From contig JAFAYV010000056.1 in assembly GCA_019240115.1 (NCBI GenBank), forward strand, positions 1 to 64,000: a stretch of 64,000 nucleotides of DNA, written 5' to 3'. Shown here piece after piece: positions 44,366 to 64,000 of this stretch (positions are counted from its first letter, which is position 1; every line of letters starts with the position of its first letter). The position numbers and the translations under genes were made by a program. The DNA is from Solirubrobacterales bacterium (GTDB taxonomy: Bacteria; Actinomycetota; Thermoleophilia; Solirubrobacterales; Solirubrobacteraceae). A model generated the notes under the pieces. That model made no database searches, was not told the origin of the DNA, and saw nothing but the letters and a program-made list of their open reading frames with translations.

Positions 44366-44543
44366 CGGCGCGACGATACGTCGCTTCCGCGCGCCGCGCA
44401 ACTTTCCGCGCTCTGACCGGCATGTCGGCGCAGGTATCATGCGCGCTGTGAACGATTGCTGCGACATGCTTGCGCGGCCATCGGAGCGGTCAGAACATAT
44501 GGCGTCGGCGATCTGCCGTTGGGACCGGAAATCGGAGGGCCTC

Positions 44544-47500: not shown

Positions 47501-48050
47501 CGACGGCTCCCAGGCGGTGGCGATCGCGTACGCCGAGGGCCTATACAAGCTCATGGCCTACAAGGACGAGTACGAGGTCGCCCGCCTGCACCTCGACACG
47601 ATCGAGCAGGCCAAGCGCGAGGCGGAGTTCGGGCCCGACGCCAAGGTCCAGATCCTGCTGCACCCGCCGGTCCTGCGCTCTCTGGGGATGAAGCGCAAGC
47701 TCGCGCTCGGCCGCTCGGCGCGGCCGCTGTTCGGCGCCCTGCACGGCGCCCGCGGGCTGCGCGGCACCGCGCTCGACCCGTTCGGGCGCACCGAGCTGCG
47801 CCGACTCGAGCGCGCGCTCGTCGGCGAGTACCGCGCGCTCGTTGAGCGGGCGCTCGGCCGCCTGAACGAGCGGACCCGCGCCCAGGTCACCGAGATCGCG
47901 CGCCTGCCCGACATGGTCCGCGGCTACGAGCAGATCAAGCTCGACAGCGTCGAGCGGATGCGCGAGCGCGCGCGCGAGCTCCAAGCCGATCTCGAGACCG
48001 CCGCGTCACGACTGCCCGAGGTTCCGGCGCTCGTCGTCACCCACGTCTGA
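44544..48050 (+). CDS. Fused indolepyruvate:ferredoxin oxidoreductase
   Basis: ATG 44544, after CGGAGGG, gives 1168 residues; the upstream frame is not conserved. The N-terminal pyrimidine-binding domain contains [20 protein letters not shown]. The TPP domain (~425-500) has [20 protein letters not shown] and [21 protein letters not shown] Cys-rich region at 633-680 ([13 protein letters not shown], then [15 protein letters not shown]) binds Fe-S. The gamma domain starts near 714 with [20 protein letters not shown], and a long C-terminal DUF6537-type region follows. The enzyme decarboxylates aryl-pyruvates to aryl-acetyl-CoA with ferredoxin, in aromatic or branched amino acid catabolism. Confidence 0.95.
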
Positions 48051-51490: not shown

Positions 51491-52312
51491 ATGGGCGACG
51501 CCGCGACCGACACCCCCGCTTCCGCCGACGACGAGCTGCACCGGTTCCGTCTCGCCGGCCGCGTCGCCATCGTCACCGGCGGCACGGGCGGGATCGGCAG
51601 CCGGATCTGCCAGGCGCTCGGCCGCGTCGGGGCGAGCGTCGTCGTCCACGGCCGCGACGAGCGACGGACCGGCGCCGTCTGCGACGGCCTACGCGCTGAG
51701 GGCATCGCCGCCGTCCCGGTGCTCGGCGACCTCACCCGCCTCACCGACGCCGACCGGCTCGCCGACGCAGCGCTCGCGGCCTTCTCCCGCGTCGATGTCC
51801 TGGTCACGACGGTCGGCGGCGGCGCCGGGTCCGCGCTGTATCCCGCCGAGTCCTACCCCGAGGACGAGTGGGATCGGATGCTCGACCTCAACCTCCGCGC
51901 CGCGCTGCTGCCGACCCAGGCCGCGGCGCGGGCGATGATCACCGGCGGGCGGGGCGGACGGGTGCTGCACCTCTCCTCGGTCCGCGGGCAGCTCGGCATC
52001 GACAACGGATTCTCGGCCTACGTGGCGGCCAAGGGCGCGCTCGACGCGCTGACCCGCCAGCAGGCGACCGAGTGGGCCAAGCACGGGATCACCGTCAACG
52101 CGATCTCGCCGACCTTCGTGGCCACCGAGCAGACGGCCGAGCTGCTCGCCGACGAGGACTTCCGCGCCGGCCTCGAGGAGCGCATCCCGTTGCATCGGAT
52201 CGCCGACACCGACGACATCGTGGGCGCGGCGCTGCTGCTCTGCACCGACGCGTCGTCGTTCATCACCGGGCAGGTCCTGACCCTCGACGGCGGGCTGACC
52301 GCCTGCCAGTGA
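51491..52312 (+). CDS. FabG-like short-chain dehydrogenase
   Basis: The 273-residue protein has a 20-residue N-terminal extension, then VAIVTGGTGGIGSRICQALG, VVVHGRDERRTGAVCDGLRA (Arg after beta-2, NADP-type), a TTVGGGAGS stretch where NNAG is usual, Ser in HLSSVRGQLG and YVAAKGA, ending VLTLDGGLTACQ. It starts divergent from the 3-hydroxyacyl-CoA dehydrogenase (156 bp between). It is followed at 28 bp by a cyclase-family hydrolase, which suggests a shared substrate. Confidence 0.93.
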   Translation: MGDAATDTPASADDELHRFRLAGRVAIVTGGTGGIGSRICQALGRVGASVVVHGRDERRTGAVCDGLRAEGIAAVPVLGDLTRLTDADRLADAALAAFSRVDVLVTTVGGGAGSALYPAESYPEDEWDRMLDLNLRAALLPTQAAARAMITGGRGGRVLHLSSVRGQLGIDNGFSAYVAAKGALDALTRQQATEWAKHGITVNAISPTFVATEQTAELLADEDFRAGLEERIPLHRIADTDDIVGAALLLCTDASSFITGQVLTLDGGLTACQ

Positions 52313-52339
52313 CATGCACCCGACCGAGGAGGCGACGCC

Positions 52340-53059
52340 GTGAGGCGCATCATCGATCTGTCCATGCCCGTGCACATGGACATGCTGACCTTCCCGCGCG
52401 TCCCCCCGCCGGCGATCACCGTCTACGAGAGCCACACCGACTTCGCCGATCGGATCGGCGCCAGCGAGTACGGCGTGACCTCGCTGACCGCGAGCTACCT
52501 GGTCGTCCAAAACGACCACGTCGGAACCCACCTCGACGCCCGCAAGCACATCGTTCCCGACGCCGGCGGCCCCGAGACGATCCCGCTCGAGTACTGCATC
52601 TCCGACGGGGTGCTGCTCGACTTCACCGCCAAGGACCCCGGCGAGGTGATCTCCGAGGACGATATCCGCCGCGAGCTCGATCGCATCGAGTACACGCTGC
52701 GGGAACGCGACATCGTCCTCAACCACACCGGCGCCGGCGCCTACAACACCGAGGAGCGCTACCGCACCGATCATCCCGGGATGAGCGCCGCCGCCACGCG
52801 GTGGCTGATCGGCCAGGGCGTGCGCCTGATGGGCGTCGACGCGATCACCTACGACCCCCCGGTATGGGCGATGTTCGAGAAACGGCTGTTCTGGGAGGCC
52901 CACCGCGTCATGTGGGACGAGGAGTACTGGCATCTCGAGAACCTCATGAACCTCGAGCAGATCGGACGTCCCCACGGGTTCCAGCTCTGTGTCCTGCCGG
53001 TCAAGTGGGTCGGTACGACCGCGGCCCCGGTGCGCGCGGTCGCGATCGTCGACGATTGA
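52340..53059 (+). CDS. Cyclase-family (PF04199, kynurenine formamidase-like) metal-dependent hydrolase
   Basis: GTG 52340 gives 239 residues. The metal motif HVGTHLDARKHI is the HxGTHxDxxxH signature, and VYESHTDFADRIGASEYGVT and GVDAITYDPPVWAMFEKRLF follow the family pattern. Members hydrolyse aryl formamides, ring imides or cyclic amides using Zn or Mn. There is a second family member (53110-54039) on the opposite strand, with different sequence, converging at 50 bp. The true substrate is unknown. Confidence 0.9.
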   Translation: MRRIIDLSMPVHMDMLTFPRVPPPAITVYESHTDFADRIGASEYGVTSLTASYLVVQNDHVGTHLDARKHIVPDAGGPETIPLEYCISDGVLLDFTAKDPGEVISEDDIRRELDRIEYTLRERDIVLNHTGAGAYNTEERYRTDHPGMSAAATRWLIGQGVRLMGVDAITYDPPVWAMFEKRLFWEAHRVMWDEEYWHLENLMNLEQIGRPHGFQLCVLPVKWVGTTAAPVRAVAIVDD

Positions 53060-53109
53060 CTTGACCTCCTCGCGCAGGACGGTGCGCCGGATCGTCGTCC
53101 GCGGCGCGG

Positions 53110-54039
53110 TCACGTGATCGCTACCGGGTCGATCATCGAGCCCGTCGCCCCGCGGATGGCCAGCGGCAGCGCCACGAACAGGAACTCGTGCACGCCCGCC
53201 GCGGCGATCCCCTCGAGATCGAGGCTCTCGATCAGGTAGATCCCGTGCTCGATGAGCAGCAGCGTGTGGACGGGCTGCGGGTTGGCGGGGGTGCCCCGGT
53301 CGGGGGCGGGCTGGACCTCATAGGTCTCGGTGTCCGAACCGGTGGCCACGACGCCGCGCGCCAGCAGCAGCTGCGCCGCCGAGATGTCGGGCCCGGCGCC
53401 GCGGCTCGCCGCCAGGTGCTCGGGATCGGGCCAGCCGGCCAGGTAACCGGTCCGCACGAGCGCGACGTCGCCGGAGCCCGCGGCCACGCCGGTGTCGGCC
53501 TCGATCGCCTGAAGGTCGGCGCCGGTCACCGGCTCGCCCGCGCTCAGCGCGGTGACGCCGCGATGGCCGGGCACGTCGTAGAGCACCCCGCGCCGCCACA
53601 GCGGCGGGATCTCGGTCGCGTCGCCGCGGACGGGCCCGAAGTCGCCGAGCTCGGTGCGCGCCGAGCCGCCGTGCCAGCGGTCCTCGTCGCCGACGGTCAT
53701 GTGCGCGTGGGCGTCGATGTGCGCGCCGGTGTGCGTCGTCCCGATGACCAGCTCGGACATAAAGCCGAGGCAGGCGTCGTTGGGCAGGCCCCAGTGGTGG
53801 TCGCCGGTCACCCGGCTGCCCTGCGGGGTGCGATAGGAGACGACCTCGAACGTCGGATGGCCCGCGAACAGCGGCATCTTCGGGAACCGCTCGCGCGCCA
53901 GGCGGAACATCCGGCCGTCGCGGATGAGGGCCGCTGCGGCGCGGACGTGCTCTGGGGTCGGCGCGGCGGCGCGCGCGGCCGGCTGCCCGGGCGAGACGAT
54001 GCCACCCTCGCCGGGCAGGCGGTCGCGCCCGCCGGTCAT
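53110..54039 (-). CDS. Second cyclase-family metal-dependent hydrolase
   Basis: ATG 54039 gives 309 residues. The HxGxHxDxxxH motif is HTGAHIDAHAHMTV, and family-like features are FRLARERFPKMPLFAGHPTF, LWRRGVLYDVPGHRGVTALS and HTLLLIEHGIYLIESLDLEG. It resembles the longer branch found with imidase- or tRNA-modifying-like enzymes. Its start lies in the last unit of a 23-bp tandem repeat, 40 bp after the HD gene, so it is probably the last gene of the ADH-BKACE-dikinase operon. It shares only the motif with the 52340 paralog. Confidence 0.9.
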   Translation of the reverse strand: MTGGRDRLPGEGGIVSPGQPAARAAAPTPEHVRAAAALIRDGRMFRLARERFPKMPLFAGHPTFEVVSYRTPQGSRVTGDHHWGLPNDACLGFMSELVIGTTHTGAHIDAHAHMTVGDEDRWHGGSARTELGDFGPVRGDATEIPPLWRRGVLYDVPGHRGVTALSAGEPVTGADLQAIEADTGVAAGSGDVALVRTGYLAGWPDPEHLAASRGAGPDISAAQLLLARGVVATGSDTETYEVQPAPDRGTPANPQPVHTLLLIEHGIYLIESLDLEGIAAAGVHEFLFVALPLAIRGATGSMIDPVAIT

Positions 54040-54106
54040 CGGGCGGGCGCTGCCGCGCTCATCGGGCGGGCGCGGCCGCGCTCATCGGGCGGGCGCTGCC
54101 GCGGTT
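54038..54106 (-). repeat. 23-bp tandem repeat, three copies, at a gene junction
   Basis: Units at 54038-54060, 54061-54083 and 54084-54106 (plus strand ATCGGGCGGGCGC-TGCCGCGCTC) differ at a few positions. On the minus strand the CGATGA of one unit is the HD stop and another supplies the ATG of the cyclase-type gene. Duplication has separated a stop-start pair that would have overlapped. Confidence 0.85.
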
Positions 54107-54657
54107 GCCTGCCGCACCTCGGCGAGCCCACGCTCGAGCATCGGCCGGCCGAGCTCGCGCGCGCGACCGAGCTCTGGATGGATGCGATCGAGCGAGCTCT
54201 GCAGCTTGGCGATCGCGGTGCGCGGCCCGTCACCGCCCCGCCGCGCCCAGCCGACGACGAGCCCGATCATGGTGTCCAGGAACGACAGCGAGTCGGCGGC
54301 CTGCAGCAGGTCGGCCCGCGGCCACCCTCCATCCTCGTGGACGGCGATGAGACCGGCGACCTCGGCCACGAGATCCTCGGGGGCGTCCTGCGCGCGCAGC
54401 CAGTCGGCGGCGATGCGCGCGCAGCGGTCCTGATGCCAGCGGTTGTAGACGGGCGAAGCCCAGTCGCGGAAGCTGTCCCAGCCGGCATCGGGGTCGGGGA
54501 ACGCGCGCTCGATGTCATGCAGCACCGCGGCGATGCGCAGCCGCGGCGCGGCGTCGGACGCGATCGCCTCGAGCCAGGCCTCGGTCGCGAGCAGGTGGTG
54601 GGCGTCGGGATGGACCTCGGAGACCCACTCCCGGGCGGCGGGCAGCAGCTCGCTCAC
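54082..54657 (-). CDS. HD-domain protein
   Basis: GTG 54657, overlapping the previous gene by GTGA, gives 191 residues. Motif residues include DAHHLLATEAW, IAAVLHDIERAF (the HD pair) and GLIAVHEDGGWPRADLLQ, which supply the usual H...HD...D metal set. The helix-rich ~190-residue size suits a small stand-alone HD hydrolase. Substrates of such proteins include nucleotides and phosphoesters; here coupling to a PEP-synthase-like pair suggests hydrolysis of a phosphorylated intermediate, which is inference. Confidence 0.85.
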   Translation of the reverse strand: MSELLPAAREWVSEVHPDAHHLLATEAWLEAIASDAAPRLRIAAVLHDIERAFPDPDAGWDSFRDWASPVYNRWHQDRCARIAADWLRAQDAPEDLVAEVAGLIAVHEDGGWPRADLLQAADSLSFLDTMIGLVVGWARRGGDGPRTAIAKLQSSLDRIHPELGRARELGRPMLERGLAEVRQATAAAPAR

Positions 54658-55559
54658 GTCGTCACCGGCCGCGCCTGCAGAACGTAGAGCTCGCCGTCCT
54701 GCACCGCCCACTCGATGTCCTGGGGCGCGCCCAGCTGCTGCTCGAGCTCGTCGCCGATCCGGGCCAGCTGCGCGAGCAGGTCGTCGCCGACCTTGCGGGC
54801 GCCTCCCTCGTCGGGGGCCAGCTCGCGCCGCATCACGCCGCCGGCCTCGTCGGCGACGATCGCGTAGGGCTGCTCGTGGACCCGCGCCCTGCGCACCCGG
54901 CCGTCGCGCCGCAGCACGTAGTGGTCGGGGGTGACCGCGCCCGAGACGGCCGCCTCGCCGAGGCCGATGACCGCCTCGACGACCATGCGGTCGCGGCGGT
55001 TGTGGACGGGATCGCAGGTGAACAGCACGCCCGCGGCGTCGGCCTGCACCATGCGCTGGACGACGACGGCCATCCCGAGGTCGTCGAGCGAGCCCTTCTC
55101 AGCGCGGTAGAACAGCGCCCGCTCGGAGAAGAACGACGCCCAGCAGTCGCGGATCCGGGCGCGCACCTGATCGCCGCCGCGGACATGCAGGAAGGTCTCC
55201 TGCTGGCCGGCGAAGCTCGCCGCGTCGGAGTCCTCGGCGCACGCGCTCGAGCGCACGGCGACCGGCGCATCGTCCTCGCCGAGCGCGGCGTAGGCCGCGA
55301 GCACCGCCTCGCGCAGCGCTGGGTGCAGCTCGACCTCGGTGACCAGCTTGCGCGCGCCCTCGGCGTCCCGGCGCCGGGCGAGGGCGTGCAGCTCGGCCCC
55401 ATCGTCGGGCAGCGCGTCGGCGAGCGCGTTAGCTGGGATGACGAACCCCGGCGGCACCGGCAGCCCGGCGCCGGCCAGACGCGCCAGCGACGCGCCCTTG
55501 CCGCCCGCGCGCCGCACCTCGGCGCAGTCGGCGTCCGCGAACTGCAGGACGAGGCTCAC
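54654..55559 (-). CDS. PEP synthase-type ATP-grasp (PPDK N-terminal) subunit
   Basis: GTG 55559, overlapping the preceding gene by GTGA, gives 301 residues. It has the PPDK N-terminal signature: GGKGASLARLAGAGLPVPPG, then PVAVRSSACAEDSDAASFAG and QQETFLHVRG, with LGMAVVVQRMVQADAAGVLF and DIEWAVQDGELYVLQARPV at the end. It is only the ATP-binding module; the phospho-His swivel domain is in the upstream gene. Together they resemble phenylphosphate synthase or rifampin phosphotransferase split in two, in the order substrate/His module then ATP module. Confidence 0.93.
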   Translation of the reverse strand: MSLVLQFADADCAEVRRAGGKGASLARLAGAGLPVPPGFVIPANALADALPDDGAELHALARRRDAEGARKLVTEVELHPALREAVLAAYAALGEDDAPVAVRSSACAEDSDAASFAGQQETFLHVRGGDQVRARIRDCWASFFSERALFYRAEKGSLDDLGMAVVVQRMVQADAAGVLFTCDPVHNRRDRMVVEAVIGLGEAAVSGAVTPDHYVLRRDGRVRRARVHEQPYAIVADEAGGVMRRELAPDEGGARKVGDDLLAQLARIGDELEQQLGAPQDIEWAVQDGELYVLQARPVTT

Positions 55560-57289
55560 GTCTCGAGGATCTCGACCACGCCGGTGGCGCCGTTGACCCG
55601 CACGCGATCGCCGGTGGCGATCCGCTCGCCGGCGTTGCCGGTCCCGACGACCGCCGGGATCCCGAACTCGCGCGCGACGACCGCCGGGTGCGAGACCGCG
55701 CCGCCGGCCTCGGTGACCAGACCCTTGATCTTCGTGAACAGCACCACCCAGGCGGGGTTGGTCATCCGACAGACGAGGATGTCGCCCTCCTGGACCTTGT
55801 CGAACTCGTCGAGCTCGGCGACGTAGCGGGCGGTTCCCTCGACGACGCCGGGCGACGCGGGCAACCCCTTGATCTCCCCGCTCGTCGTGGGCTCGCCGGC
55901 GTAGAAGCGATCCGGGAAGCCCCACAGCCCGCCGTAGGGGAACTCGATCGCCGACTTGGTCGCGGTGCCCAGCCACGCCGGTGCCCGACGCTCGAAGGCC
56001 TCCTCGTGCTCGTCGCGGCGGTCGGAGACGAGCTCGGCCGCGTCGAACGCCCGAGGGTCGGCCATCAGCCGGCGCAGCTCGTTGTAGTGCAGGAACACGA
56101 CATCCTCGGGGTCGTCGAGCGCCCCGGCCTCGACGAGCTTGCGCCCGATCGCGATCACGACGAGCCGCAGGCGCGCGTTCGTCCCCTGATCGACGAAGAA
56201 GTGGTGGTCCGGGGTCAGCGGATTCATCTTCAGCGACAGCTCGAGCGCGCGCGCGAGTCGCTCGCGATCCTCGCCCTCGACGTCCTCCATGACCTCGCGC
56301 TTGGCGGCCTCGAGATCGTCGGAGACCGCGCGCAGGTTCGCCGGATAGTCGTAGTCGGTGGCGACGTAGCCGCGGATCGCCTCGACGATCGGCGCCGGGT
56401 CCTCGACCCACAGCTTGTACATGAGCTCGTGCGACCACAGCGCCTTGTAGCCGAAGGTCCGCTGATGGCTCTCGATCCGCTCGGCGATCAGGCGCCGTCC
56501 GCGGTCAGAGCCGCCGAGCGCCTCCATGACCTCGGCCGCGGTCGCCGCCTCGAACGCCGACTGCAGCTCGGGGTCGGACCTGACTTCCTCCTTGGCCTGC
56601 CAGAGGTCCTCGATCGCGTCCCAGTTGCGGTCCTCGACGCTCGACTGCAGGCGGCCCATGAGCGACGGGTCGCCGCCGACCTCCTCGATCACCTGGTTGA
56701 GGTTCTGGGTCGACGCGAACTGGGCGAAGTTCAGCATCCAGTGGATCTTCCAGTGGCGGTCGTGGATGTCGATCGCGTCCTCGAGCAGCACGGCGAGCTC
56801 GAGCAGGGAGGCGTCGGCGTCGTCGAACTCGTCGAGGTAGGCGAAGTTGCGCTCGATCTCGGGGCGCAGCCGCGCGCGCCACCAGTCGATGAAGTTCGCC
56901 GCGTAGATCGGCAGCACGCCGCCGAGGTAGGCGCCGATCTCGCCCGCGTACTCCGGATCGCGCGGCACCCGCGGCACGTAGCGGTTCTCGTACTCGGTCG
57001 CCTCGGCGTGCAGCTCGGGGTCGCAGGGAACCGCCGCCGTGTACACGTAGCCGTTGACCTCCTTGGCGATCCAGTCGCACGCGAACGGTGTGCCGAAGCG
57101 CCGGAACATGTGGTCACAGCTCAGCCACCAGCCGCCGATGTCGAAGAACAGCGGCGAGACCGGGTTGGGGATGTGCAGGTCGTCGTAGATCCAGAACAGG
57201 TCGCGCTCACCCTCGCGCCACTGGACCGGGAACGCGTCGGTTCCGAAGTTGGTGCCGAGCACCTCGTCGTCGCGCGTCGTCACTGCCAT
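55556..57289 (-). CDS. PEP-utilising enzyme, substrate plus phospho-His (swivel) subunit
   Basis: The 577-residue protein starts MAVTTRDDEVLGTNFGTDAF. Residues ~1-480 form a large alpha-helical domain (IDWWRARLRPEIERNFAYLD, FGYKALWSHELMYKLWVEDP, VVFLHYNELRRLMADPRAFD), unlike PEP synthase itself. Residues ~480-577 are the mobile domain LPASPGVVEGTARYVAEL with the phosphorylatable His in GGAVSHPAVVAREFGIPAVV. The large domain is probably the acceptor-binding part, comparable to the antibiotic-binding domain of rifampin phosphotransferase. The ATP module is the next gene. The acceptor is unknown. Confidence 0.9.
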   Translation of the reverse strand: MAVTTRDDEVLGTNFGTDAFPVQWREGERDLFWIYDDLHIPNPVSPLFFDIGGWWLSCDHMFRRFGTPFACDWIAKEVNGYVYTAAVPCDPELHAEATEYENRYVPRVPRDPEYAGEIGAYLGGVLPIYAANFIDWWRARLRPEIERNFAYLDEFDDADASLLELAVLLEDAIDIHDRHWKIHWMLNFAQFASTQNLNQVIEEVGGDPSLMGRLQSSVEDRNWDAIEDLWQAKEEVRSDPELQSAFEAATAAEVMEALGGSDRGRRLIAERIESHQRTFGYKALWSHELMYKLWVEDPAPIVEAIRGYVATDYDYPANLRAVSDDLEAAKREVMEDVEGEDRERLARALELSLKMNPLTPDHHFFVDQGTNARLRLVVIAIGRKLVEAGALDDPEDVVFLHYNELRRLMADPRAFDAAELVSDRRDEHEEAFERRAPAWLGTATKSAIEFPYGGLWGFPDRFYAGEPTTSGEIKGLPASPGVVEGTARYVAELDEFDKVQEGDILVCRMTNPAWVVLFTKIKGLVTEAGGAVSHPAVVAREFGIPAVVGTGNAGERIATGDRVRVNGATGVVEILET

Positions 57290-57316
57290 GGTTGTCCCTC
57301 TCCTGCGCTCGTGGGT

Positions 57317-58231
57317 TCACTGCGCGCTGCCGAGCCCAAGCGCCCGACGCGCGTCGTCGCCGACCACCGGCTCGCGATCGAGCAGCGGGGCCAGCGTCAT
57401 CGCCTTCTCCACCAGCTCACCGTTGGACTCCGCGCGGTGCCCGCCCGTCACCCGCAGGTTGTCCTCGAGCCCGACGCGAATATGCCCGCCCAGCATGAGC
57501 GACGTCGCCGCGAGGTGGAACTGGCCGGGATACCCGACCCCGGCCGCCGACCAGGTGAAGTCGTCGCCGAACAGCGTCACCGCCGTCTGGTGCATGTGCA
57601 GCAGCTGGCCCAGGGTGGCGGCGTTGGCGCCGAGCACGCCGAGCACGAACTGGATGTGCGCCGGGGTGTCGACGAGCCCCTGGTCGAGCAGGTGACGCAG
57701 GTTGTACAGGTGTCCGACGTCGTAGACCTCGTACTCGGGCTTGGCGCCCGCCTCGCGGAACAGCTCCGAGAGGCGATAGAGGTCGGCAAAGGTGTTGCGG
57801 AAGATGAACTCCCTGGTCGACTCGAGGTACTCGGTCTCCCACTCGGCCATCTCGGGCCGGTGGCGCACCTCGAAGATCCCGAAGTTGAACGAGCCGCAGT
57901 TGAACGTCGCCATCTCGGGCCGGCACTCGGTGACCACCCGGGCGCGATCCTCGATCGTCATCCCGACGCCGCCGCCGGTCGTCGGCTGCACGATCGCCCC
58001 GCAGCGCTCGCCGATCCCGGCGAGCACCTCCTTGAACAGGCCGAGGTCGGCCGATGGCCGGCCCGTCTCGGGCTCGCGGACGTGGACGTGGACGATCGCC
58101 GCCCCCGCCTCGTGGGCGGCCACCGCGGACTCGATGATCTCCTCGGGGGTGACGGGGATGGCGGGACTCTGCCCCGGCACGCTCATGCCTCCGGTGATCG
58201 CGCACGAGCACAGGACCGGGGCTCCGGTCAT
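57317..58231 (-). CDS. BKACE-family beta-keto acid cleavage enzyme
   Basis: The 304-residue DUF849 protein has the metal motif HVHVRE (His48, His50), GAIVQPTTGGGVGMTIEDRA, TFNCGSFNFGIF, and IRVGLEDNLRV near the C terminus, all BKACE hallmarks. Enzymes of this family cleave a beta-keto acid plus acetyl-CoA to acetoacetate and an acyl-CoA. The gene overlaps the alcohol dehydrogenase stop by ATGA, indicating that the dehydrogenase forms the beta-keto substrate. It is full-length, unlike the BKACE at 23786. Confidence 0.94.
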   Translation of the reverse strand: MTGAPVLCSCAITGGMSVPGQSPAIPVTPEEIIESAVAAHEAGAAIVHVHVREPETGRPSADLGLFKEVLAGIGERCGAIVQPTTGGGVGMTIEDRARVVTECRPEMATFNCGSFNFGIFEVRHRPEMAEWETEYLESTREFIFRNTFADLYRLSELFREAGAKPEYEVYDVGHLYNLRHLLDQGLVDTPAHIQFVLGVLGANAATLGQLLHMHQTAVTLFGDDFTWSAAGVGYPGQFHLAATSLMLGGHIRVGLEDNLRVTGGHRAESNGELVEKAMTLAPLLDREPVVGDDARRALGLGSAQ

Positions 58232-59289
58232 GCCGCGACCTCCAGGCGTGGCTGGACGATGACCTTCAGGGCGCCGTCGCGGCGCTCGGTGAAGGTGGCG
58301 TACGCGTCGGCGAAGGACTCGAGCGCGAAGCGGTGGGTGATCAGCTCGGACAGGCGGATCCGGCCGCTGGCGGCGAGCGCGATCGCGCGCGGCATCTCCC
58401 CGGCGAGCGCGCGCACGCCGACGACGTCGACCTCGTCGAGCACGGTCCGCGGCATCGGCAGCTGGGCGTCGGCGAGCGGGATCCCGACGACCGCGACGCG
58501 GCCGCCCTTGCGCACCATCTCGACGCTCTGACCGACCGCCTCGGGCGCGCCCGAGCACTCGATGGCGACGTCGGCTCCGGAGCCACCCGTGGCCGCGCGC
58601 ACCGCGGCCACCGGGTCGCCGCGGGTGAAGTCGACGATCTCGTGACCGAGCTCGCGCGCCTTGCGCAGGCGGGCGCCGCGGCCGACGACGAGCACCCGGC
58701 CGGCGCCGAGCGCCCGCGCGCACTCGCCGACGAGCAGGCCCATGACCCCGGGGCCGACGACGACGACGGCGTCGCCCGGCCGCTGTCCGCCGCGGAGCAC
58801 CGTGTGCAGCGCGATCGCGGCCGGATCGAGCATCGCGGCCTCCTCGTCGGAGAGCACGTCGGGAACGGCGAACACGCTGCGGACCGAGTGCACGACGTAC
58901 TCGGCGTAGGCCCCGGGCGCGTTGTGCCCGTACTGGGCGTGCAGATCCTCGATCCCGAAGTTCTCGCAGATGTTGTAGCGGCCCTCGATGCAGCGGGCGC
59001 AGTAGCCGCAGGGCGCGTGGGAGGTCCCGGCCACTCGCGTCCCGACCTCCCAGCCGAGCTGCGCGGCGCCGTCTCCGAGCTCGACGATCTCGCCGCACCA
59101 CTCGTGGCCCGGGGTCAGCGGCCACTCCTTGGGCCAGAAGCCCGGGTACTCCCCGCGGATGATGTGGGGGTCGGTGCCGCAGATCGCGGTCGCGCGCACC
59201 CGGCACAGGACCTCGTAGCGCCGCGGCCGCGGCCGCTCGACGTCCCGGACGGCGAAGTCGTTGGGCGCGACGACGACGAGCGCGCGCAT
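58228..59289 (-). CDS. Zinc-dependent medium-chain alcohol dehydrogenase
   Basis: ATG 59289 gives 353 residues. The catalytic zinc site is CGTDPHII and GHEWCGEIVELG, the structural zinc site is APCGYCARCIEGRYNIC with four Cys, and the NAD-binding turn is VVGPGVMGLLVGECARALGA. It resembles threonine or polyol dehydrogenases. It oxidises a secondary alcohol with NAD(P). Being first in the operon and coupled to BKACE, it probably makes a beta-keto acid from a beta-hydroxy acid. The start is 90 bp from the divergent phosphoesterase. Confidence 0.93.
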   Translation of the reverse strand: MRALVVVAPNDFAVRDVERPRPRRYEVLCRVRATAICGTDPHIIRGEYPGFWPKEWPLTPGHEWCGEIVELGDGAAQLGWEVGTRVAGTSHAPCGYCARCIEGRYNICENFGIEDLHAQYGHNAPGAYAEYVVHSVRSVFAVPDVLSDEEAAMLDPAAIALHTVLRGGQRPGDAVVVVGPGVMGLLVGECARALGAGRVLVVGRGARLRKARELGHEIVDFTRGDPVAAVRAATGGSGADVAIECSGAPEAVGQSVEMVRKGGRVAVVGIPLADAQLPMPRTVLDEVDVVGVRALAGEMPRAIALAASGRIRLSELITHRFALESFADAYATFTERRDGALKVIVQPRLEVAA

Positions 59290-59378
59290 CAGCGCGCCGC
59301 TTGCGACATCGAACGCTGCACCATCCTGCTCTCCCTCCCGGTCGTCGCGGTCGACGACCAATCATAGATAATCGATCA

Positions 59379-60191
59379 ATGGCGGAGAGGGACGCGACGG
59401 TGGTCGCGCTCTACGACATCCATGGCAACGTGCCGGCGCTCGATGCCGTGCTCGCGCAGCTGCGCGACAATCCGCCCGACGTCGTCGTCGTCGGCGGCGA
59501 CGTCTGCGCCGGCCCGATGCCCCGCGAGGTGCTCGCCCGGCTTCGCGAGTTGCCCTGGCCGACGCGCTGGCTGCGCGGCAACGCCGACCGCGCCGTCGTC
59601 ATGGGCTTCGACGGCACGATCGGACCCGAGCTGCTCGATCACCCGCTGTACGCCGGGGACGCGTGGGCGGCGACGTTCCTGGACGCCACCGAGCGCGACT
59701 TCCTCGCCGGCCTGCCGCCCCTGCAGGCGCTCGAGGTTGACGGCCTCGGCGAGGTGCTCTTCTGCCACGGCAGCGCGCGCAGCGACGAAGAGCGGGTGAC
59801 GACCGCGACCCCGGAGGACCGGCTGGCGCGCATCCTGCGCGACGCGGGTGCGCGCGTCCTCGTCGGCGGGCACACCCACCGCCAGTTCGACCGCCGCGCC
59901 GGCCATCGGCGGATGATCAACGCCGGGAGCATCGGCCGGCCCTACGAGCGCGAGCCGGGCGCCTATTGGCTGCGCCTCGGTCCCGACGTGTCGTTGCAGC
60001 GCACTGCCTATGACACCGCGACCGCCGACGCCGCCTTCCACGCCCTCGGCTATCCCGCCGCCGATCTGATCTTCGCGCCCGTCGACCCCGACGTCGTGGC
60101 CGCCGACTTCGAGCGCGCAAGCGCCCGCCCGCTCGCGCCGGCGTCGCTCATCGCCTCAGCCGAGAACCCCCTCTACGATCGCCCGGCATGA
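59379..60191 (+). CDS. Calcineurin-like metallophosphoesterase
   Basis: ATG 59379 gives 270 residues. The metal motifs are ALYDIHGN, VVVVGGDVCAGP, WLRGNAD, and HGSARSDEE, ending with VGGHTHRQFDRRAG. This is the YfcE/MJ0936-like two-metal phosphodiesterase or phosphatase fold. Its stop overlaps the FAD subunit of the molybdenum hydroxylase by ATGA. Such a phosphatase is not a usual partner of these enzymes, so its role (perhaps processing a phosphorylated substrate) is unclear. Confidence 0.92.
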   Translation: MAERDATVVALYDIHGNVPALDAVLAQLRDNPPDVVVVGGDVCAGPMPREVLARLRELPWPTRWLRGNADRAVVMGFDGTIGPELLDHPLYAGDAWAATFLDATERDFLAGLPPLQALEVDGLGEVLFCHGSARSDEERVTTATPEDRLARILRDAGARVLVGGHTHRQFDRRAGHRRMINAGSIGRPYEREPGAYWLRLGPDVSLQRTAYDTATADAAFHALGYPAADLIFAPVDPDVVAADFERASARPLAPASLIASAENPLYDRPA

Positions 60192-61117
60192 GCGCGGTGC
60201 AGTGGCTGGAGCCCCGATCGCTGGCCGAGGCGGGCGAGGTGCGCGCGCAGCGCGGGGCGGAGGCGACGGTGCTCGCCGGCGGCAGCTTCCTCGGCATCCT
60301 CATGAACCAGGGCTTCCTGAGTCCCACGTGCCTGCTGTCGCTGCGCGCCGTCGGTGAGCTGCGCGGCATCACCGTTCGCGACGGGGAGCTGTGCCTCGGC
60401 GCGATGGTCACCCACCGCCAGGTCGAGCGTGACGAGACGGTGCGCCGCGACTGGCCGGCGCTCGCGCGCGCCTTCGGGATCGTCGCCAGCCCCCGGGTCC
60501 GCAATCAGGCGACCGTGGGCGGCGTGCTCGCTGACGCCGACTACGCGTCAGACCCGCCCGCGATGCTCGGCGCGCTCGGCGCGCGGGCGGTACTGCGCGG
60601 TCCTACCGGCGAGCGCGAGGTGGCGATCGACGAGCTCATCCTCGGCTTCTATCAGACGTGCATCGCCGACGACGAGCTGCTGACCGAGGTCCGCGTCCCG
60701 CCGGCCGAACCCGGCGCCGTCTATCGCAAGTTCCGCTCGCGCTCCAGCGAGGACCGGCCGTGTGTCGCGGTCGCTGCCGCGCGGAGCGGCGGCGCACTGC
60801 GCGTCGTGGTCGGCGCCTGCGCCGAGATGCCCCAGCACTACCCCGACATCTGTGCGCTCGCCGCCGAGGGACCGCTCGACGGCGCGATGGCGCGGGAGAT
60901 CGCGCGCCGCTACGCCGAGCGCCTGCAGCCGCTGACCGACGCGCGCGGGAGCGCCGGCTATCGGCGGCGGATCGTCGCGGTCGAGGTGCGTCGCGCGCTG
61001 GAGGAGCTCGGGGGGGTCGGCGGAGAGACGCTCGTGCGGGGTCGGCAGGGAGGGACGCTCGTGCGGGGTCGGCGGGGAGGGACGCTCGTGAGGGGTCGGC
61101 GGAGGGCGGGTCCGTGA
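60188..61117 (+). CDS. FAD-binding (medium) subunit of a molybdenum hydroxylase, with repeat tail
   Basis: The 309-residue protein has AGGSFLGILMNQGFLSPTCL (FAD loop), LGAMVTHRQVERDETVRRDW, GIVASPRVRNQATVGGVLAD and YASDPPAMLGALGARAVLRG, and ends with a DUF-like CO_deh_flav_C domain. It passes electrons from Fe-S clusters to an acceptor. The final ~30 residues are three copies of TLVRGRxGG, encoded by a 27-bp tandem repeat (61027-61107); they are not part of the family fold. The next gene starts 22 bases later at GTG 61140. Confidence 0.9.
   Translation: MSAVQWLEPRSLAEAGEVRAQRGAEATVLAGGSFLGILMNQGFLSPTCLLSLRAVGELRGITVRDGELCLGAMVTHRQVERDETVRRDWPALARAFGIVASPRVRNQATVGGVLADADYASDPPAMLGALGARAVLRGPTGEREVAIDELILGFYQTCIADDELLTEVRVPPAEPGAVYRKFRSRSSEDRPCVAVAAARSGGALRVVVGACAEMPQHYPDICALAAEGPLDGAMAREIARRYAERLQPLTDARGSAGYRRRIVAVEVRRALEELGGVGGETLVRGRQGGTLVRGRRGGTLVRGRRRAGP
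61027..61107 (+). repeat. 27-bp tandem repeat in a coding tail, three copies
   Basis: Units GACGCTCGTGCGG-GGTCGGC... of 27 bp at 61027-61053, 61054-61080 and 61081-61107 encode TLVRGRQGG, TLVRGRRGG and TLVRGRRRA. A fainter continuation is seen in the GC-rich linker to 61140. Confidence 0.85.
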
Positions 61118-61139
61118 GCGTTGGGCGGGGAGCGGGGTC

Positions 61140-63221
61140 GTGAGCGCCAGCGGGCTCGACGCGCGGGTCACCGGGCAGCTGCGCTACGCCGTCGACGCCG
61201 AGCGCCCGGGGATGCTGCACGCCGCGTTCGTGCGCAGCCCCCATGCCCACGCCCGGGTCGTCTCGATCGACGCGACTGCGGTGGGGGCCGACTGCGTGGC
61301 GCTGACCGGCGAGGACGTCGCCGACCTGCGGCGCTACGGCTGCCAGGTGCGCGACGAGCACGTGCTCGCCGCGGTGGCCCGGCACGTCGGCGATGTCGTG
61401 GCCGCGGTCGCGGCGCCGACCCCACGGGCGGCGCGGGAGGCCGCAGACCGGGTCGAGGTGCGCTACGAGGAGCTGCCCGCTGTCTACGACCCGGTGGAGG
61501 CGGTCGAGCCCGGCGCGCCGCTGCTGCATCCCGACGGCGCTCACTCGGCCGGCGAGGCGGTCTCGATCGGGGTGCGCCCGCTCGCCGGCACCAACGCCTG
61601 CCATCGCTTCCGTCTCGTCCACGGCGACGTCGCCGCCGGGTTCGGCGACGCCGAGGTCGTCGTCCAGCGCGCCTACCGGACCCCGAGCGCCGCGCACGCG
61701 CCGATGGAGCCCCACGCGGCGGTCGCCGAGTGGGAGGACGAGCGGTTGACGATCTGGACCGGCACCCAGACGCCGTTCAACCTCCGCGCCGACCTGGCGG
61801 TCGCGTTCGGGCTCGACGAGGAGCGCATCCGGATCGTCGGCGGCACGATGGGCGGGTCGTTCGGGGCCAAGACGTTCGTCCGCCAGGAGGCGGTGCTCGC
61901 GGCGCTGGCTCGCAAGGCCGGCCGACCGGTCAAGGTCGTCCTCGATCGCGCCGAGGAATTCGTGACGCTCAACCGCCATCCGTCGGTCATTCGGGTGCGG
62001 CTCGGCGCCCGGCGCGACGGGTCGCTCGTGGCCAAGGAGCTCGACTGCTGGGTGGACACCGGCGCCTACGCCGACTGCGGCCCCGGCGTGGCGACCAAGC
62101 TCGGCTACGCCGGCGTGGGCCCGTACCGCATCCCGCACGTCCGCGTCGATGCGCTCGCGATCTACACCAACCTGCCGCCGAACGGCGCCTATCGCGGCTA
62201 CGGCGCGATGCAGTCGATCTGGGCCTCCGAGCGCACGATGGACGTGCTCGCCGCCGAGGTCGATCTGAGCCCGCTCGAGCTGCGACGACGCAACCTCCTG
62301 CGCGACGGCGACCGCTTTGCCACCGGCGAGGTCATGCACGACGTCCAGTTCGAGCGCTGCCTACAGGCGGCCGCCGACGCCGTCGACTACGAGCGCGACC
62401 CCCGCGGCAAGGGTCTGTGCGTCCTGCTCAAGGGCATGCAGACCCCCAGCCGCGCCGCCATCTCGGTGCAGCGCGCGCCCGTCGGCTACGTCATCCACAC
62501 CGCGGCCACCGAGATGGGGCAGGGGATGCGCCGGTCGCTGCAGCTTCTGGGCGCCGAGCTGCTCGGGTGCGAGCCGGGGCAGATCGAGATCGCCGCGCCC
62601 GACACCGACACCTCGCCCTACGACACTCGCACGACCTCGAGCCGCACCACCCATATGATGGGCCGCGCGCTCGAGGAGGCGGTGCGCGACCTGCGCACGA
62701 ACAGCAACGAGCGCGGGTACGGCGAGATCCGCAACGAGGGCGGGCTGGACCCCGACAGCGGGCAGGGCATCGCCTCGACCCACTGGCATCAGGGTGCCGC
62801 CGCCGCGCGGGTGACCGTCGACGAGGAGACCGGCAAGCTGACGGTCGACCACCTCCACGGCGTCGCCTACGCCGGGCGGATCGTCAACCCCGAGGGGGCG
62901 GCGCTGCAGAACGAGGGCGCGTTGCTGATGGGGCTGGGCACGACGTTGTTCGAGGCGATCGAGTTCGCCGATGGGCAGGTCGCCAACGCCAACCTGTCGG
63001 ACTACAACCTGCCCGCGACCGGCGATCTCCCGACGCGCTTCACGCACGAGATCATCGAGCGCGAGGGCGCCGACGTGCACGGCCTCGGCGAGACCGTGCT
63101 GCCGCCGGTGCCCGCGGCGATCGGCAACGCGCTGTTCTCGCTCGGGCTGGACGTCGCCGAGCTGCCGATCTCGGCCGAGCGCGTGCTCGCCGCCGTCGAC
63201 GCCCGCCGGGAGCGCTCGTGA
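61140..63221 (+). CDS. Molybdopterin-binding (large) subunit of a molybdenum hydroxylase
   Basis: GTG 61140 gives 693 residues. It has the xanthine dehydrogenase family Mo-pterin pattern: GMLHAAFVRSPHAHARVVSI, GGTMGGSFGAKTFVRQEAVL, and the active-site loop TNLPPNGAYRGYGAMQSIWA. The loop reads AYRGYG, not the AYxCSFR of form I CO dehydrogenase, so it is a xanthine/aldehyde or aromatic-CoA-type hydroxylase. The Glu base near the end (HGLGETVLPPVP) is conserved. The stop overlaps the Fe-S subunit by GTGA. Confidence 0.93.
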   Translation: MSASGLDARVTGQLRYAVDAERPGMLHAAFVRSPHAHARVVSIDATAVGADCVALTGEDVADLRRYGCQVRDEHVLAAVARHVGDVVAAVAAPTPRAAREAADRVEVRYEELPAVYDPVEAVEPGAPLLHPDGAHSAGEAVSIGVRPLAGTNACHRFRLVHGDVAAGFGDAEVVVQRAYRTPSAAHAPMEPHAAVAEWEDERLTIWTGTQTPFNLRADLAVAFGLDEERIRIVGGTMGGSFGAKTFVRQEAVLAALARKAGRPVKVVLDRAEEFVTLNRHPSVIRVRLGARRDGSLVAKELDCWVDTGAYADCGPGVATKLGYAGVGPYRIPHVRVDALAIYTNLPPNGAYRGYGAMQSIWASERTMDVLAAEVDLSPLELRRRNLLRDGDRFATGEVMHDVQFERCLQAAADAVDYERDPRGKGLCVLLKGMQTPSRAAISVQRAPVGYVIHTAATEMGQGMRRSLQLLGAELLGCEPGQIEIAAPDTDTSPYDTRTTSSRTTHMMGRALEEAVRDLRTNSNERGYGEIRNEGGLDPDSGQGIASTHWHQGAAAARVTVDEETGKLTVDHLHGVAYAGRIVNPEGAALQNEGALLMGLGTTLFEAIEFADGQVANANLSDYNLPATGDLPTRFTHEIIEREGADVHGLGETVLPPVPAAIGNALFSLGLDVAELPISAERVLAAVDARRERS

Positions 63222-63685
63222 ACGTTGCGCTCGAGCTCAACGGCCGGTCGGTCGGGCTCGAGTGCGAGCCCGACGAGATGCTGCTCGCGGTGCTGCGCCG
63301 CGAGGGGCTGCGCTCGGTGCGCGCGACCTGCGGCATCGGCGTCTGCGGCGCCTGCACGGTGCTCGTCGACGGCGAGCCGGTCTCGGGCTGTCTGATGCTC
63401 GCGGCGCTGAGCGCCGGGCGACGGGTGACGACGGTCGAAGGGCTCAGCAGCGCCGATCCCGTGCCGCGGGCGTTCGTCGAGGCCCACGCCTACCAGTGCG
63501 GGTGGTGCACGCCCGGGTTCATCCTGACCGCCAAGGCGCTGCTCGCCGACAACCCCGACCCGAGCGAAGCCGAGATCGGCGAGGCGCTCGGCGGCAACCT
63601 CTGCCGCTGCGGGTCCTACGTCGAGATCGTCGCCGCCATCCGTCGCGCCGCGGCCGAGCTCGCCGGGGGCGCGCTGAGGCAATGA
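63218..63685 (+). CDS. [2Fe-2S] (small) subunit of a molybdenum hydroxylase
   Basis: GTG 63218 gives 155 residues. The plant-ferredoxin cluster ligands lie in RATCGIGVCGACTVLVDGEP, with SGCLMLAALS as the fourth. The second cluster is QCGWCTPGFILTAKALL and GGNLCRCGSYVEIV. It completes the three-subunit set (FAD, Mo, Fe-S). Electrons flow from the Mo site through these clusters to FAD. The order FAD-Mo-FeS is one of the common arrangements. Confidence 0.96.
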   Translation: MNVALELNGRSVGLECEPDEMLLAVLRREGLRSVRATCGIGVCGACTVLVDGEPVSGCLMLAALSAGRRVTTVEGLSSADPVPRAFVEAHAYQCGWCTPGFILTAKALLADNPDPSEAEIGEALGGNLCRCGSYVEIVAAIRRAAAELAGGALRQ

Positions 63686-63839: not shown

Positions 63840-64000
63840 GTGAAGCTCCGCAACGCGTTCACCGTCCCGGCGCTCGTCGACGAGGCGTGGGCGGTGCTGC
63901 TCGACCTCGAGCGCGTCGCGCCCTGCATGCCGGGGGCCGAGCTCGATGGCGGCGACGGGGGCGAGTTCACCGGCCGGATGGCGGTCCGCATCGGACCGGT
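63840..64000 (+). CDS. CoxG-like (carbon monoxide dehydrogenase subunit G) SRPBCC protein (partial)
   Basis: GTG 63840 opens MKLRNAFTVPALVDEAWAVL with LDLERVAPCMPGAELDGGDG and FTGRMAVRIGPV, the N-terminal third of the CoxG family. Members are membrane-recruiting or maturation factors encoded with Mo-hydroxylase subunits. The gene runs off the right window edge. It shows that the Mo-hydroxylase operon continues. Confidence 0.9.
   Translation, partial: MKLRNAFTVPALVDEAWAVLLDLERVAPCMPGAELDGGDGGEFTGRMAVRIGP

What the first reader, a model, noticed from the sequence alone, without database searches (positions are those of the whole stretch)
53110..59289. Possible new pathway: split dikinase with BKACE, Zn-ADH, HD protein and cyclase
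Six minus-strand genes form one coupled run. Zn-ADH/BKACE overlap by ATGA; swivel/ATP and ATP/HD overlap by GTGA; the gaps are 27 bp and 40 bp elsewhere. The 577-residue subunit combines a large helical acceptor-like domain with the phospho-His mobile domain, and the ATP module is a separate 301-residue protein. The order is the reverse of rifampin phosphotransferase. ADH plus BKACE implies beta-hydroxy acid oxidation and keto cleavage; the dikinase implies phosphorylation of an unknown acceptor. No described pathway that I recall joins these parts.
Basis: partly seen in the sequence, partly recalled or inferred. Interest (0 to 1): 0.7.

Follow-up and report, generated by a model that had tools for sequence, protein, structure and literature searches.

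The report
Dikinase-primed ring-degradation gene cluster
Six neighbouring genes, with a molybdenum enzyme beside them, look like a widespread but undescribed bacterial pathway that tags a small ring-shaped molecule with phosphate, oxidises it, removes the tag and then breaks the ring open for food.

Summary
The six-gene run is real. The split dikinase itself is not new: HpeHI, CreHI and PpsAB are known two-component dikinases with the same domain split. The 577-residue subunit folds like the acceptor-plus-swivel half of rifampin phosphotransferase (model pLDDT 90.9; Z 27.4). It forms a separate clade, though, with only 24-27% identity to the PpsA, CreH and HpeH-like references.

Co-occurrence is not limited to this genome. 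The clade occurs in Actinomycetota, Chloroflexota, Alphaproteobacteria, Bacillota and Spirochaetota. Of 36 well-flanked loci, 34 carry an XDH-type molybdenum hydroxylase and 25 a PF04199 cyclase. The same six families also cluster in a Chloroflexi and a Dormibacterota genome.

The divergent Mo-hydroxylase (60188-63685), a CoxG-like gene and a second cyclase (52340-53059) belong too. The HD protein's closest relatives sit in other dikinase/Mo-hydroxylase clusters, and in two close relatives HD and cyclase are one continuous ORF.

Best reading: phosphorylate, Mo-hydroxylate, dephosphorylate (HD), open the ring hydrolytically (cyclase), oxidise (Zn-ADH), cleave (BKACE). Substrate unknown. Each half has a precedent; I found none for the combination.

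The parts
58228..59289 (-). Zn-dependent alcohol dehydrogenase (353 aa); proposed oxidation of the hydroxy acid formed by ring opening
   Evidence: Pfam ADH_N and ADH_zinc_N; CGTD, GHE and four-Cys structural-zinc motifs; orthologues at 52-82% identity in 17 SWIV-clade loci, usually directly after CYC
57317..58231 (-). BKACE (PF05853, 304 aa); proposed terminal beta-keto acid cleavage with acetyl-CoA
   Evidence: Pfam 321.5 bits; HVH (48-50) and GLEDN (254-258) metal/catalytic motifs kept; ATGA overlap with ADH; 67-85% identical orthologues beside SWIV in L056, L057, L058, L073, L075
55556..57289 (-). Dikinase acceptor + swivel subunit (577 aa); catalytic His534 in TEAGGAVSH
   Evidence: PF00391 at 500-570; model pLDDT 90.9 matches RPH 314-867, Z 27.4, 489 residues, rmsd 3.7; His534 invariant in 51 sequences
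54654..55559 (-). Dikinase ATP-grasp subunit (PPDK_N, 301 aa)
   Evidence: PF01326 279.8 bits; closest solved relatives PEP synthase and RPH ATP domains; GTGA overlap; about 50-81% identical orthologues adjacent in many loci
54082..54657 (-). HD-superfamily protein (191 aa), proposed phosphohydrolase that removes the phosphate
   Evidence: H21, H47-D48, H75, H107, D122 invariant; model pLDDT 92.5 matches HD hydrolases 2pq7 and YpgQ, Z 14; relatives sit in other dikinase + Mo-hydroxylase loci
53110..54039 (-). PF04199 cyclase/hydrolase CYC (309 aa), proposed hydrolytic ring opening
   Evidence: PF04199 66.2 bits; HTGAHIDAHAH metal motif; in frame with HD, and one continuous ORF with it in L040 and L041; about 60% identical orthologues in 17 SWIV-clade loci
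52340..53059 (+). Second PF04199 hydrolase CYC2 (239 aa), converging on CYC
   Evidence: PF04199 108.8 bits; HVGTHLDARKH motif; 55-92% identical orthologues in 25 SWIV-clade loci, often directly beside SWIV/ATP
51491..52312 (+). SDR oxidoreductase, next to CYC2; probable pathway member
   Evidence: 79-83% identical and in the same place in L040, L041, L042
59379..60191 (+). Calcineurin-like metallophosphoesterase, divergent from ADH; possible alternative phosphatase
   Evidence: PF12850; same place in L041/L057, 72% identity; a haloarchaeal dikinase pair also has a divergent metallophosphoesterase
60188..61117 (+). Mo-hydroxylase FAD subunit
   Evidence: PF00941 and PF03450; 62-75% identical orthologues in the SWIV-clade loci examined
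61140..63221 (+). Mo-hydroxylase molybdopterin subunit (693 aa)
   Evidence: PF02738, PF20256, PF01315; GLGE motif with the presumed catalytic Glu; 58-82% identical orthologues
63218..63685 (+). Mo-hydroxylase 2Fe-2S subunit; a CoxG/SRPBCC gene begins at 63840 and ends at contig position 64829, beyond the window
   Evidence: 60-78% identical orthologues; CoxG PF06240 in L055
54033..54103 (.). Three tandem copies of a 23-bp unit spanning the HD stop and the cyclase start
   Evidence: both genes lie in the same frame, separated by one TGA and 14 codons

Best explanation
The locus encodes a catabolic pathway for a small hydroxylated ring compound, built on a phosphate bracket. (1) The two-component dikinase uses ATP to phosphorylate its own His534, then passes the phosphate to a hydroxyl group of the substrate held in the helical acceptor domain. 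(2) The three-subunit Mo-hydroxylase encoded divergently, probably anchored by the CoxG-like protein, hydroxylates the phosphorylated ring with oxygen from water. (3) The HD protein (or the metallophosphoesterase) removes the phosphate. (4) The PF04199 enzyme(s) open the ring hydrolytically. (5) The Zn-ADH oxidises the resulting hydroxy acid to a beta-keto acid. (6) BKACE cleaves it with acetyl-CoA. Shown here: the genes, their families, catalytic motifs, folds and conserved linkage. Inferred: every reaction, their order and the substrate.
For: Linkage: in 36 SWIV-clade loci with at least 6 kb on both sides, 34 have an XDH-type Mo-hydroxylase gene, 25 a PF04199 gene, 28 an ATP-grasp partner (PPDK_N or PPDK-like) and 18 a phosphatase-type gene of varying family: HD, histidine phosphatase, PHP and others. 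Relatives of the six genes cluster together in Chloroflexi L073 and Dormibacterota L075 with similar divergence: SWIV 63-64, BKACE 67, CYC 62, ADH 63-65%. Kinase chemistry: RPH fold and T/SxxGGxxxH motif; HpeHI is a proven two-component dikinase whose H581Q variant is dead (PMC12167813). Bracket logic: phosphorylate, modify, dephosphorylate is shown for Hpe (PMC9618137); Cre has phosphohydrolase CreD (PMC7764795 table), which by gene order is the HD protein in Rhodococcus cre loci. HD role: its family is rare (7 of 396 genomes) and the two other strong hits, as well as L054, lie in dikinase clusters; L155 and L054 also have a Mo-hydroxylase and CoxG gene. HD and CYC are one ORF in L040 and L041, arguing for consecutive steps. 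Lower steps: in phloroglucinol degradation a PF04199 'cyclase' does a retro-Claisen ring opening, a dehydrogenase oxidises the product and a BKACE (TAL) cleaves it (PMC10470551).
Against: No substrate, product or activity was tested. CYC and BKACE are not in every SWIV-clade locus (BKACE in only 6), so steps 5-6 are an extension specific to some lineages. Many Chloroflexi loci lack this ATP-grasp subunit and carry a PPDK-like protein or an unannotated P-loop protein instead. Some loci add transaldolase, split transketolase, sugar-type ABC transporters or GAPDH/PGK-like genes, which would fit a polyol or sugar substrate better than an aromatic one. HD resembles CreD only weakly (28.8% over 139 residues, E 0.002 in a tiny database). 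Orthologues of the FAH and ABM genes found in relatives are not in the next 16 kb of this contig, and the own genome has only distant FAH relatives.
Confidence: 0.5

Rival explanations
1. Sugar/polyol pathway: the dikinase phosphorylates a cyclitol, sugar lactone or similar polyol, the XDH-type enzyme is an aldehyde/sugar oxidoreductase, and the PF04199 protein is a lactonase-like hydrolase.
For: TAL/FSA genes in 20 of 81 loci, sugar-type ABC transporters, split transketolase, Gfo/Idh/MocA-type and type II GAPDH + PGK-like genes in some loci. RPH phosphorylates an aliphatic hydroxyl (established knowledge).
Against: These genes are absent from the window locus and from the Solirubrobacter, Rubrobacter, Thermogemmatispora and Rhodobacteraceae neighbourhoods (a transaldolase-like gene does occur in L040). 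The characterised two-component relatives act on phenols. BKACE and FAH point to beta-keto or diketo acid intermediates.
Confidence: 0.2
2. A variant of the 3-hydroxypyridine (3hpd) pathway: same chemistry on the same or a very similar hydroxypyridine, with PF04199 replacing the NicX-type ring opening.
For: The 3hpd system joins a Mo-hydroxylase with separate SRPBCC to a PEP-utilising protein and dikinase (Wang et al. 2020, recalled; its title, the SRPBCC/CoxG role and its spread in Rubrobacteria and Thermoleophilia are quoted in PMC11962113 and PMC10117386). Relatives of the HD protein lie in 3hpd-like clusters with M29-, isochorismatase- and Amdase-type genes.
Against: The 3hpd-like clusters carry CreH/HpeH-clade subunits (42-48% identical to CreH), not the window clade. 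No M29-type ring dioxygenase or isochorismatase gene was called near the window locus (not scanned by HMM). BKACE and ADH have no place in the maleamate pathway.
Confidence: 0.15
3. Two independent modules merely adjacent: a phloroglucinol-like module (cyclase, ADH, BKACE) and an unrelated dikinase module.
For: CYC-ADH and SWIV-ATP also occur as separate pairs in other loci.
Against: BKACE lies between ADH and SWIV, with ATGA/GTGA overlaps along the run; HD (dikinase-linked) is fused to CYC in two relatives; the same combination occurs in other phyla with similar divergence.
Confidence: 0.08
4. Antibiotic-inactivating kinase (RPH-like resistance) with unrelated metabolic neighbours.
For: Fold match to rifampin phosphotransferase.
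Against: Split subunits, a conserved catabolic neighbourhood in several phyla including anaerobes, and ABC importer and GntR genes nearby.
Confidence: 0.03

Closest known systems
HpeHI / AcvAB hydroxyphenylethanone dikinase (Rhodococcus GD02, Sphingobium SYK-6)
   Same: Two-component dikinase: ATP-grasp subunit plus acceptor+swivel subunit with the catalytic His in T/SxxGGxxxH; phosphate added and later removed by a pathway phosphatase (PMC9618137, PMC12167813)
   Different: 26-27% identity to HpeH-like proteins, separate clade 100/100; no biotin-dependent carboxylase; Mo-hydroxylase and PF04199 instead; phosphatase HD rather than HAD/NagD type
CreHI / CreD 4-cresol system (Corynebacterium, Rhodococcus)
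   Same: Two-component dikinase with an HD-domain protein in the same operon; CreD is annotated as a phosphohydrolase (PMC7764795)
   Different: 24% identity to CreH; P450 replaced by a Mo-hydroxylase; CreD only weakly similar to this HD protein
Phenylphosphate synthase PpsABC
   Same: Split dikinase with acceptor+swivel alpha subunit
   Different: 24% identity to Azoarcus PpsA; no Ppc/UbiD carboxylase genes seen near this operon
3-hydroxypyridine (3hpd) cluster, HpdA
   Same: Mo-hydroxylase with CoxG/SRPBCC tied to a dikinase (Wang et al. 2020, recalled); similar clusters L155 and L054 contain an HD protein of the same family
   Different: Its dikinase-like subunits (in L054, L155) belong to the CreH/HpeH side; ring opening by M29/NicX-type enzymes, not PF04199 + BKACE
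Phloroglucinol pathway (DPGC, TfD, TAL)
   Same: PF04199 hydrolase, then a dehydrogenase, then a BKACE-family enzyme (PMC10470551)
   Different: TfD is of the 3-hydroxyacyl-CoA dehydrogenase type, not Zn-ADH; starts with a reductase and has no dikinase or Mo-hydroxylase; this BKACE scores 319.6 bits, below the 430-bit cut-off of the 3,5-dioxohexanoate equivalog
Rifampin phosphotransferase (RPH)
   Same: Best fold match for the swivel subunit, over RPH residues 314-867 (Z 27.4); ATP-grasp homologous
   Different: Single chain; 22% identity over the aligned part; resistance enzyme rather than catabolic

Membership tests
Two-component small-molecule dikinases (RPH-like) | ATP-grasp (PPDK_N) on its own chain | tested here: met
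   PF01326 over residues 17-301 of a 301-aa protein
Two-component small-molecule dikinases (RPH-like) | Second chain = RPH-type acceptor domain + C-terminal swivel domain | tested here: met
   Model pLDDT 90.9; RPH 5fbt Z 27.4, 489 residues, rmsd 3.7
Two-component small-molecule dikinases (RPH-like) | Catalytic His in T/SxxGGxxxH | tested here: met
   TEAGGAVSH 526-534; His534 invariant in 51 sequences including PpsA, CreH and HpeH-like
Two-component small-molecule dikinases (RPH-like) | ATP to AMP with phosphorylated acceptor | not testable with these tools
   needs assay
Phenolic clade PpsA/CreH/HpeH | About 45% pairwise identity among members (PMC12167813) | tested here: not met
   24-27% to PpsA, CreH and HpeH-like
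Phenolic clade PpsA/CreH/HpeH | Passes an NCBIfam PRK08296-series model that PpsA, CreH and HpeH-like proteins pass | tested here: not met
   189 bits against a 578 cut-off; references score 917-1300 on their best model
Phenolic clade PpsA/CreH/HpeH | Groups inside that clade in a tree | tested here: not met
   Window clade and phenolic group each on one side of a 100/100 branch
PEP synthase | Additional C-terminal PEP/pyruvate-binding barrel domain | tested here: not met
   Only PF00391 found on the swivel chain; ends at the swivel domain
BKACE (PF05853) | Family profile and HxH / E metal ligands | tested here: met
   321.5 bits; HVH 48-50, GLEDN 254-258
3,5-dioxohexanoate-cleaving BKACE (TAL type) | NCBIfam NF053538 cut-off 430 bits | tested here: not met
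   319.6 bits
Phloroglucinol pathway | Phloroglucinol reductase present | not tested
   No PGR sequence was searched
PF04199 hydrolases | HxGxHxDxxxH metal motif | tested here: met
   CYC HTGAHIDAHAH, CYC2 HVGTHLDARKH
HD superfamily | H...HD...D metal ligands and HD fold | tested here: met
   H21, H47-D48, H107, D122 invariant; 2pq7 Z 14.6, 156 residues, rmsd 3.8
DUF4202 (PF13875) | Gathering score 35.1 | tested here: not met
   21.5 bits
3hpd (3-hydroxypyridine) cluster | Mo-hydroxylase + separate SRPBCC + PEP-utilising protein + dikinase (recalled) | tested here: met
   All four present in the locus and its continuation
3hpd (3-hydroxypyridine) cluster | M29/NicX-type ring-opening dioxygenase | tested here: inconclusive
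   None recognised among gene calls in the window or the following 16 kb, but no HMM scan for it was run

The most novel reading that the evidence does not exclude
This dikinase clade defines a widespread, undescribed catabolic pathway in at least five phyla, aerobes and anaerobes alike, in which phosphorylation of a ring hydroxyl primes an oxygen-independent Mo-hydroxylase, a phosphatase (HD here, other families elsewhere) releases the tag, and the ring is opened hydrolytically by PF04199 enzymes rather than by a dioxygenase.
Probability: 0.4. Interest if true: 0.75.

Novelty: new variant of a known kind. Interest (0 to 1): 0.6.

Why it matters
If right, it is a further branch of catabolic two-component dikinases beside the phenol, cresol, hydroxyphenylethanone and hydroxypyridine systems, found in abundant soil Chloroflexi and Actinomycetota, marine Rhodobacteraceae and gut and termite anaerobes. 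It would suggest why some Mo-hydroxylases travel with a dikinase and a phosphatase, and would give an oxygen-independent, hydrolytic route for opening a ring. It also predicts a function for an unassigned HD family and for several PF04199 and BKACE members, and it is directly testable with purified proteins.

Tried and rejected
Orthology to PpsA, CreH or HpeH: rejected. PEP synthase: rejected, no PEP-binding barrel on the chain. 'Reverse order' as a special feature: rejected, swivel-before-ATP is also the Pps and Hpe gene order. 4-Hydroxybenzoyl-CoA reductase for the Mo enzyme: it is the best NCBIfam hit of the Mo subunit but far below cut-off (363.7 against 994.6 bits); the alignment offset of the FAD subunit suggests that it lacks the insertion I recall for that reductase, so oxidative hydroxylation is assumed. 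VceA as a BKACE in acetovanillone catabolism: my recollection could not be checked (one search does not state its family). The library held no paper joining these genes; the 4-cresol paper (PMC4813557) and the 3-hydroxypyridine paper (10.1128/AEM.01313-20) are not held. Promoter and terminator scans gave nothing. An attempt to infer the substrate from neighbouring genes gave conflicting hints (aromatic/heteroaromatic against polyol).

Full report
Observation. The six minus-strand genes are present at the stated places with the stated overlaps. Pfam assigns Zn-ADH, BKACE (PF05853), PEP-utilizers mobile domain, PPDK_N and PF04199; the HD protein scores only weakly, below cut-off, with DUF4202. 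One small correction: the HD-cyclase gap is 42 bp.

What the dikinase is. The swivel subunit was modelled with high confidence (46 sequences, pLDDT 90.9, pTM 0.90). It matches rifampin phosphotransferase residues 314-867, the rifampin-binding and swivel domains (Z 27.4, 489 residues, rmsd 3.7, 22% identity). This is the arrangement reported for HpeH, while HpeI is the ATP-grasp partner (PMC12167813). The catalytic His lies in TEAGGAVSH (His534) and is invariant in 51 sequences including PpsA, CreH and HpeH-like references. So the split dikinase is a known kind of enzyme. It is not an orthologue of the characterised ones: identity to them is 24-27% against about 45% among them (PMC12167813), it stays far below NCBIfam models that they pass, and a maximum-likelihood tree places 32 window-clade sequences on one side of a 100/100 branch, apart from PpsA, CreH and HpeH-like rows.

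Distribution and neighbours. Orthologues at 69-87% occur in three relatives and in five genomes of another actinobacterial family. One scan of named genomes gave 95 relatives, of which 80 loci were kept; a Thermomicrobium roseum plasmid carries one more. They span Solirubrobacterales, Rubrobacteraceae, Acidimicrobiia, many Chloroflexota, Thermogemmatispora, Rhodobacteraceae, Moorella, Bacillus, Oscillibacter and Treponema. Genes were called and clustered with my own caller, so individual starts may be off. In 36 loci with at least 6 kb on both sides, an XDH-type Mo-hydroxylase gene is within 10 kb in 34, GntR in 28, an ATP-grasp partner in 28, a PF04199 gene in 25, ABC transporter genes in 21 and a phosphatase-type gene in 18. 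The own genome has five PF04199 matches in 4.03 Mb, so this is not background.

The six-gene set elsewhere. L073 (Chloroflexi) and L075 (Dormibacterota) carry FAH-ABM-BKACE-SWIV-ATP-HD-CYC-ADH in one run, with SWIV 63-64, BKACE 67, CYC 62 and ADH 63-65% identical to the window. Similar divergence of all parts argues for long association. Many Chloroflexota and Acidimicrobiia loci keep CYC-ADH directly downstream of the Mo-hydroxylase. The window locus should therefore be read as at least 51491-63685, continuing into a CoxG/SRPBCC gene at contig 63840-64829.

The HD protein. All expected HD ligands are conserved, and its model (pLDDT 92.5) matches HD hydrolases such as 2pq7 and YpgQ (Z 14.6 and 14.1; for a helical protein of this size that score alone would be modest, but the named HD motif agrees). 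The family is rare: 7 of 396 Actinomycetota genomes, with only three strong hits. The two strong hits outside the window, and a further copy in L054, all lie in loci with CreH/HpeH-type two-component dikinases; L155 and L054 also contain a Mo-hydroxylase and CoxG together with M29-type, isochorismatase and alpha/beta hydrolase genes, plus an Amdase-type gene in L155. That gene set resembles the 3-hydroxypyridine pathway, in which a dikinase is needed for the Mo-hydroxylase HpdA (Wang et al. 2020; that statement is from memory, the paper is not held; its title and the proposed CoxG role are cited in PMC11962113, and its reported spread, including Rubrobacteria and Thermoleophilia, in PMC10117386). 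In cre loci of Rhodococcus plasmids an HD protein occupies the place of creD, listed as a phosphohydrolase in C. glutamicum (PMC7764795). In the two closest relatives HD and cyclase form one continuous reading frame of about 500 codons. In the window they are in the same frame, separated by one TGA and 14 codons, and the junction consists of three 23-bp tandem copies. I infer that HD acts on the dikinase product and hands it to the cyclase.

Lower pathway. CYC and CYC2 carry the PF04199 metal motif and are related to each other (hhalign probability 99). In Clostridium scatologenes a PF04199-type 'cyclase' performs a retro-Claisen ring opening, a dehydrogenase follows and a BKACE-family lyase ends the sequence (PMC10470551). 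The same order fits CYC, Zn-ADH and BKACE here. This BKACE keeps the metal/catalytic motifs, has Met16 where I align Kce Glu14 (inferred numbering; TAL has Trp there according to PMC10470551), and falls below the TAL-type cut-off, so its beta-keto acid is probably not an amine and need not be triacetate.

Mechanism and confidence. I place about 0.9 on a small-molecule dikinase in a catabolic locus, about 0.65 on HD (or the metallophosphoesterase) as the phosphate-removing enzyme, and about 0.5 on the full order phosphorylate, Mo-hydroxylate, dephosphorylate, hydrolyse the ring, oxidise, cleave. The substrate is open. Hydroxylated heteroaromatics or polyphenols are favoured by the relatives; cyclitols or sugar lactones remain possible because some loci carry transaldolase, transketolase and sugar-transporter genes.

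Novelty. Each half has a precedent; the combination and the clade do not appear in the papers I could search. It is possible that Wang et al. 2020 counted some of these clusters, and subscription papers could not be checked. I therefore file it as a new variant of a known kind.

Noticed in passing
window 54033-54103: Three tandem 23-bp copies at the HD stop/cyclase start; HD and cyclase are in frame here and one ORF in L040/L041, so a fusion may have been split or vice versa.
   Followed up: partly
L081-L127 (Chloroflexota, Acidimicrobiia), L116, L117, L120, L126, L130, L131, L135: A P-loop protein of about 295 aa (GGESNHGKS motif, resembles HPr kinase to the eye, no Pfam or NCBIfam hit) is encoded beside SWIV in 32 loci, often where the ATP-grasp subunit is missing.
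   Followed up: partly
L085, L088, L093, L096, L102, L104-L107, L109, L110, L113 and others: A 714-aa PPDK-like protein (ATP-grasp plus its own swivel motif) replaces or supplements the small ATP-grasp subunit in 17 Chloroflexi-type loci.
   Followed up: no
L054 5298-20000, L154, L155: 3-hydroxypyridine-like clusters in relatives: two CreH/HpeH-type subunits, ATP-grasp, Mo-hydroxylase, CoxG, HD, M29-type and isochorismatase genes (L154 seen only in part).
   Followed up: partly
L144 (Thermomicrobium roseum plasmid): A second, phenolic-clade dikinase pair lies just upstream of a three-subunit XDH-type Mo-hydroxylase.
   Followed up: no
L146 (Natrinema plasmid): Haloarchaeal two-component dikinase with a divergent metallophosphoesterase next to ring-hydroxylating dioxygenase genes.
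   Followed up: no
window 23786-24544: A second, short BKACE-family gene (91.6 bits) in the same window, followed by acyl-CoA dehydrogenase, SDR and other catabolic-looking genes.
   Followed up: no
window 38426-42723 and 44499-48050: A hydantoinase/oxoprolinase-like gene pair and an indolepyruvate oxidoreductase-like gene (read from the sequence only), so the whole region looks rich in catabolic genes.
   Followed up: no
window 61050-61117; L055 4400-4650: In-frame tandem repeats at the end of the Mo-hydroxylase FAD subunit (GGTLVRGR) and in the CoxG protein (AAAGAGR), like the junction repeats near HD.
   Followed up: no
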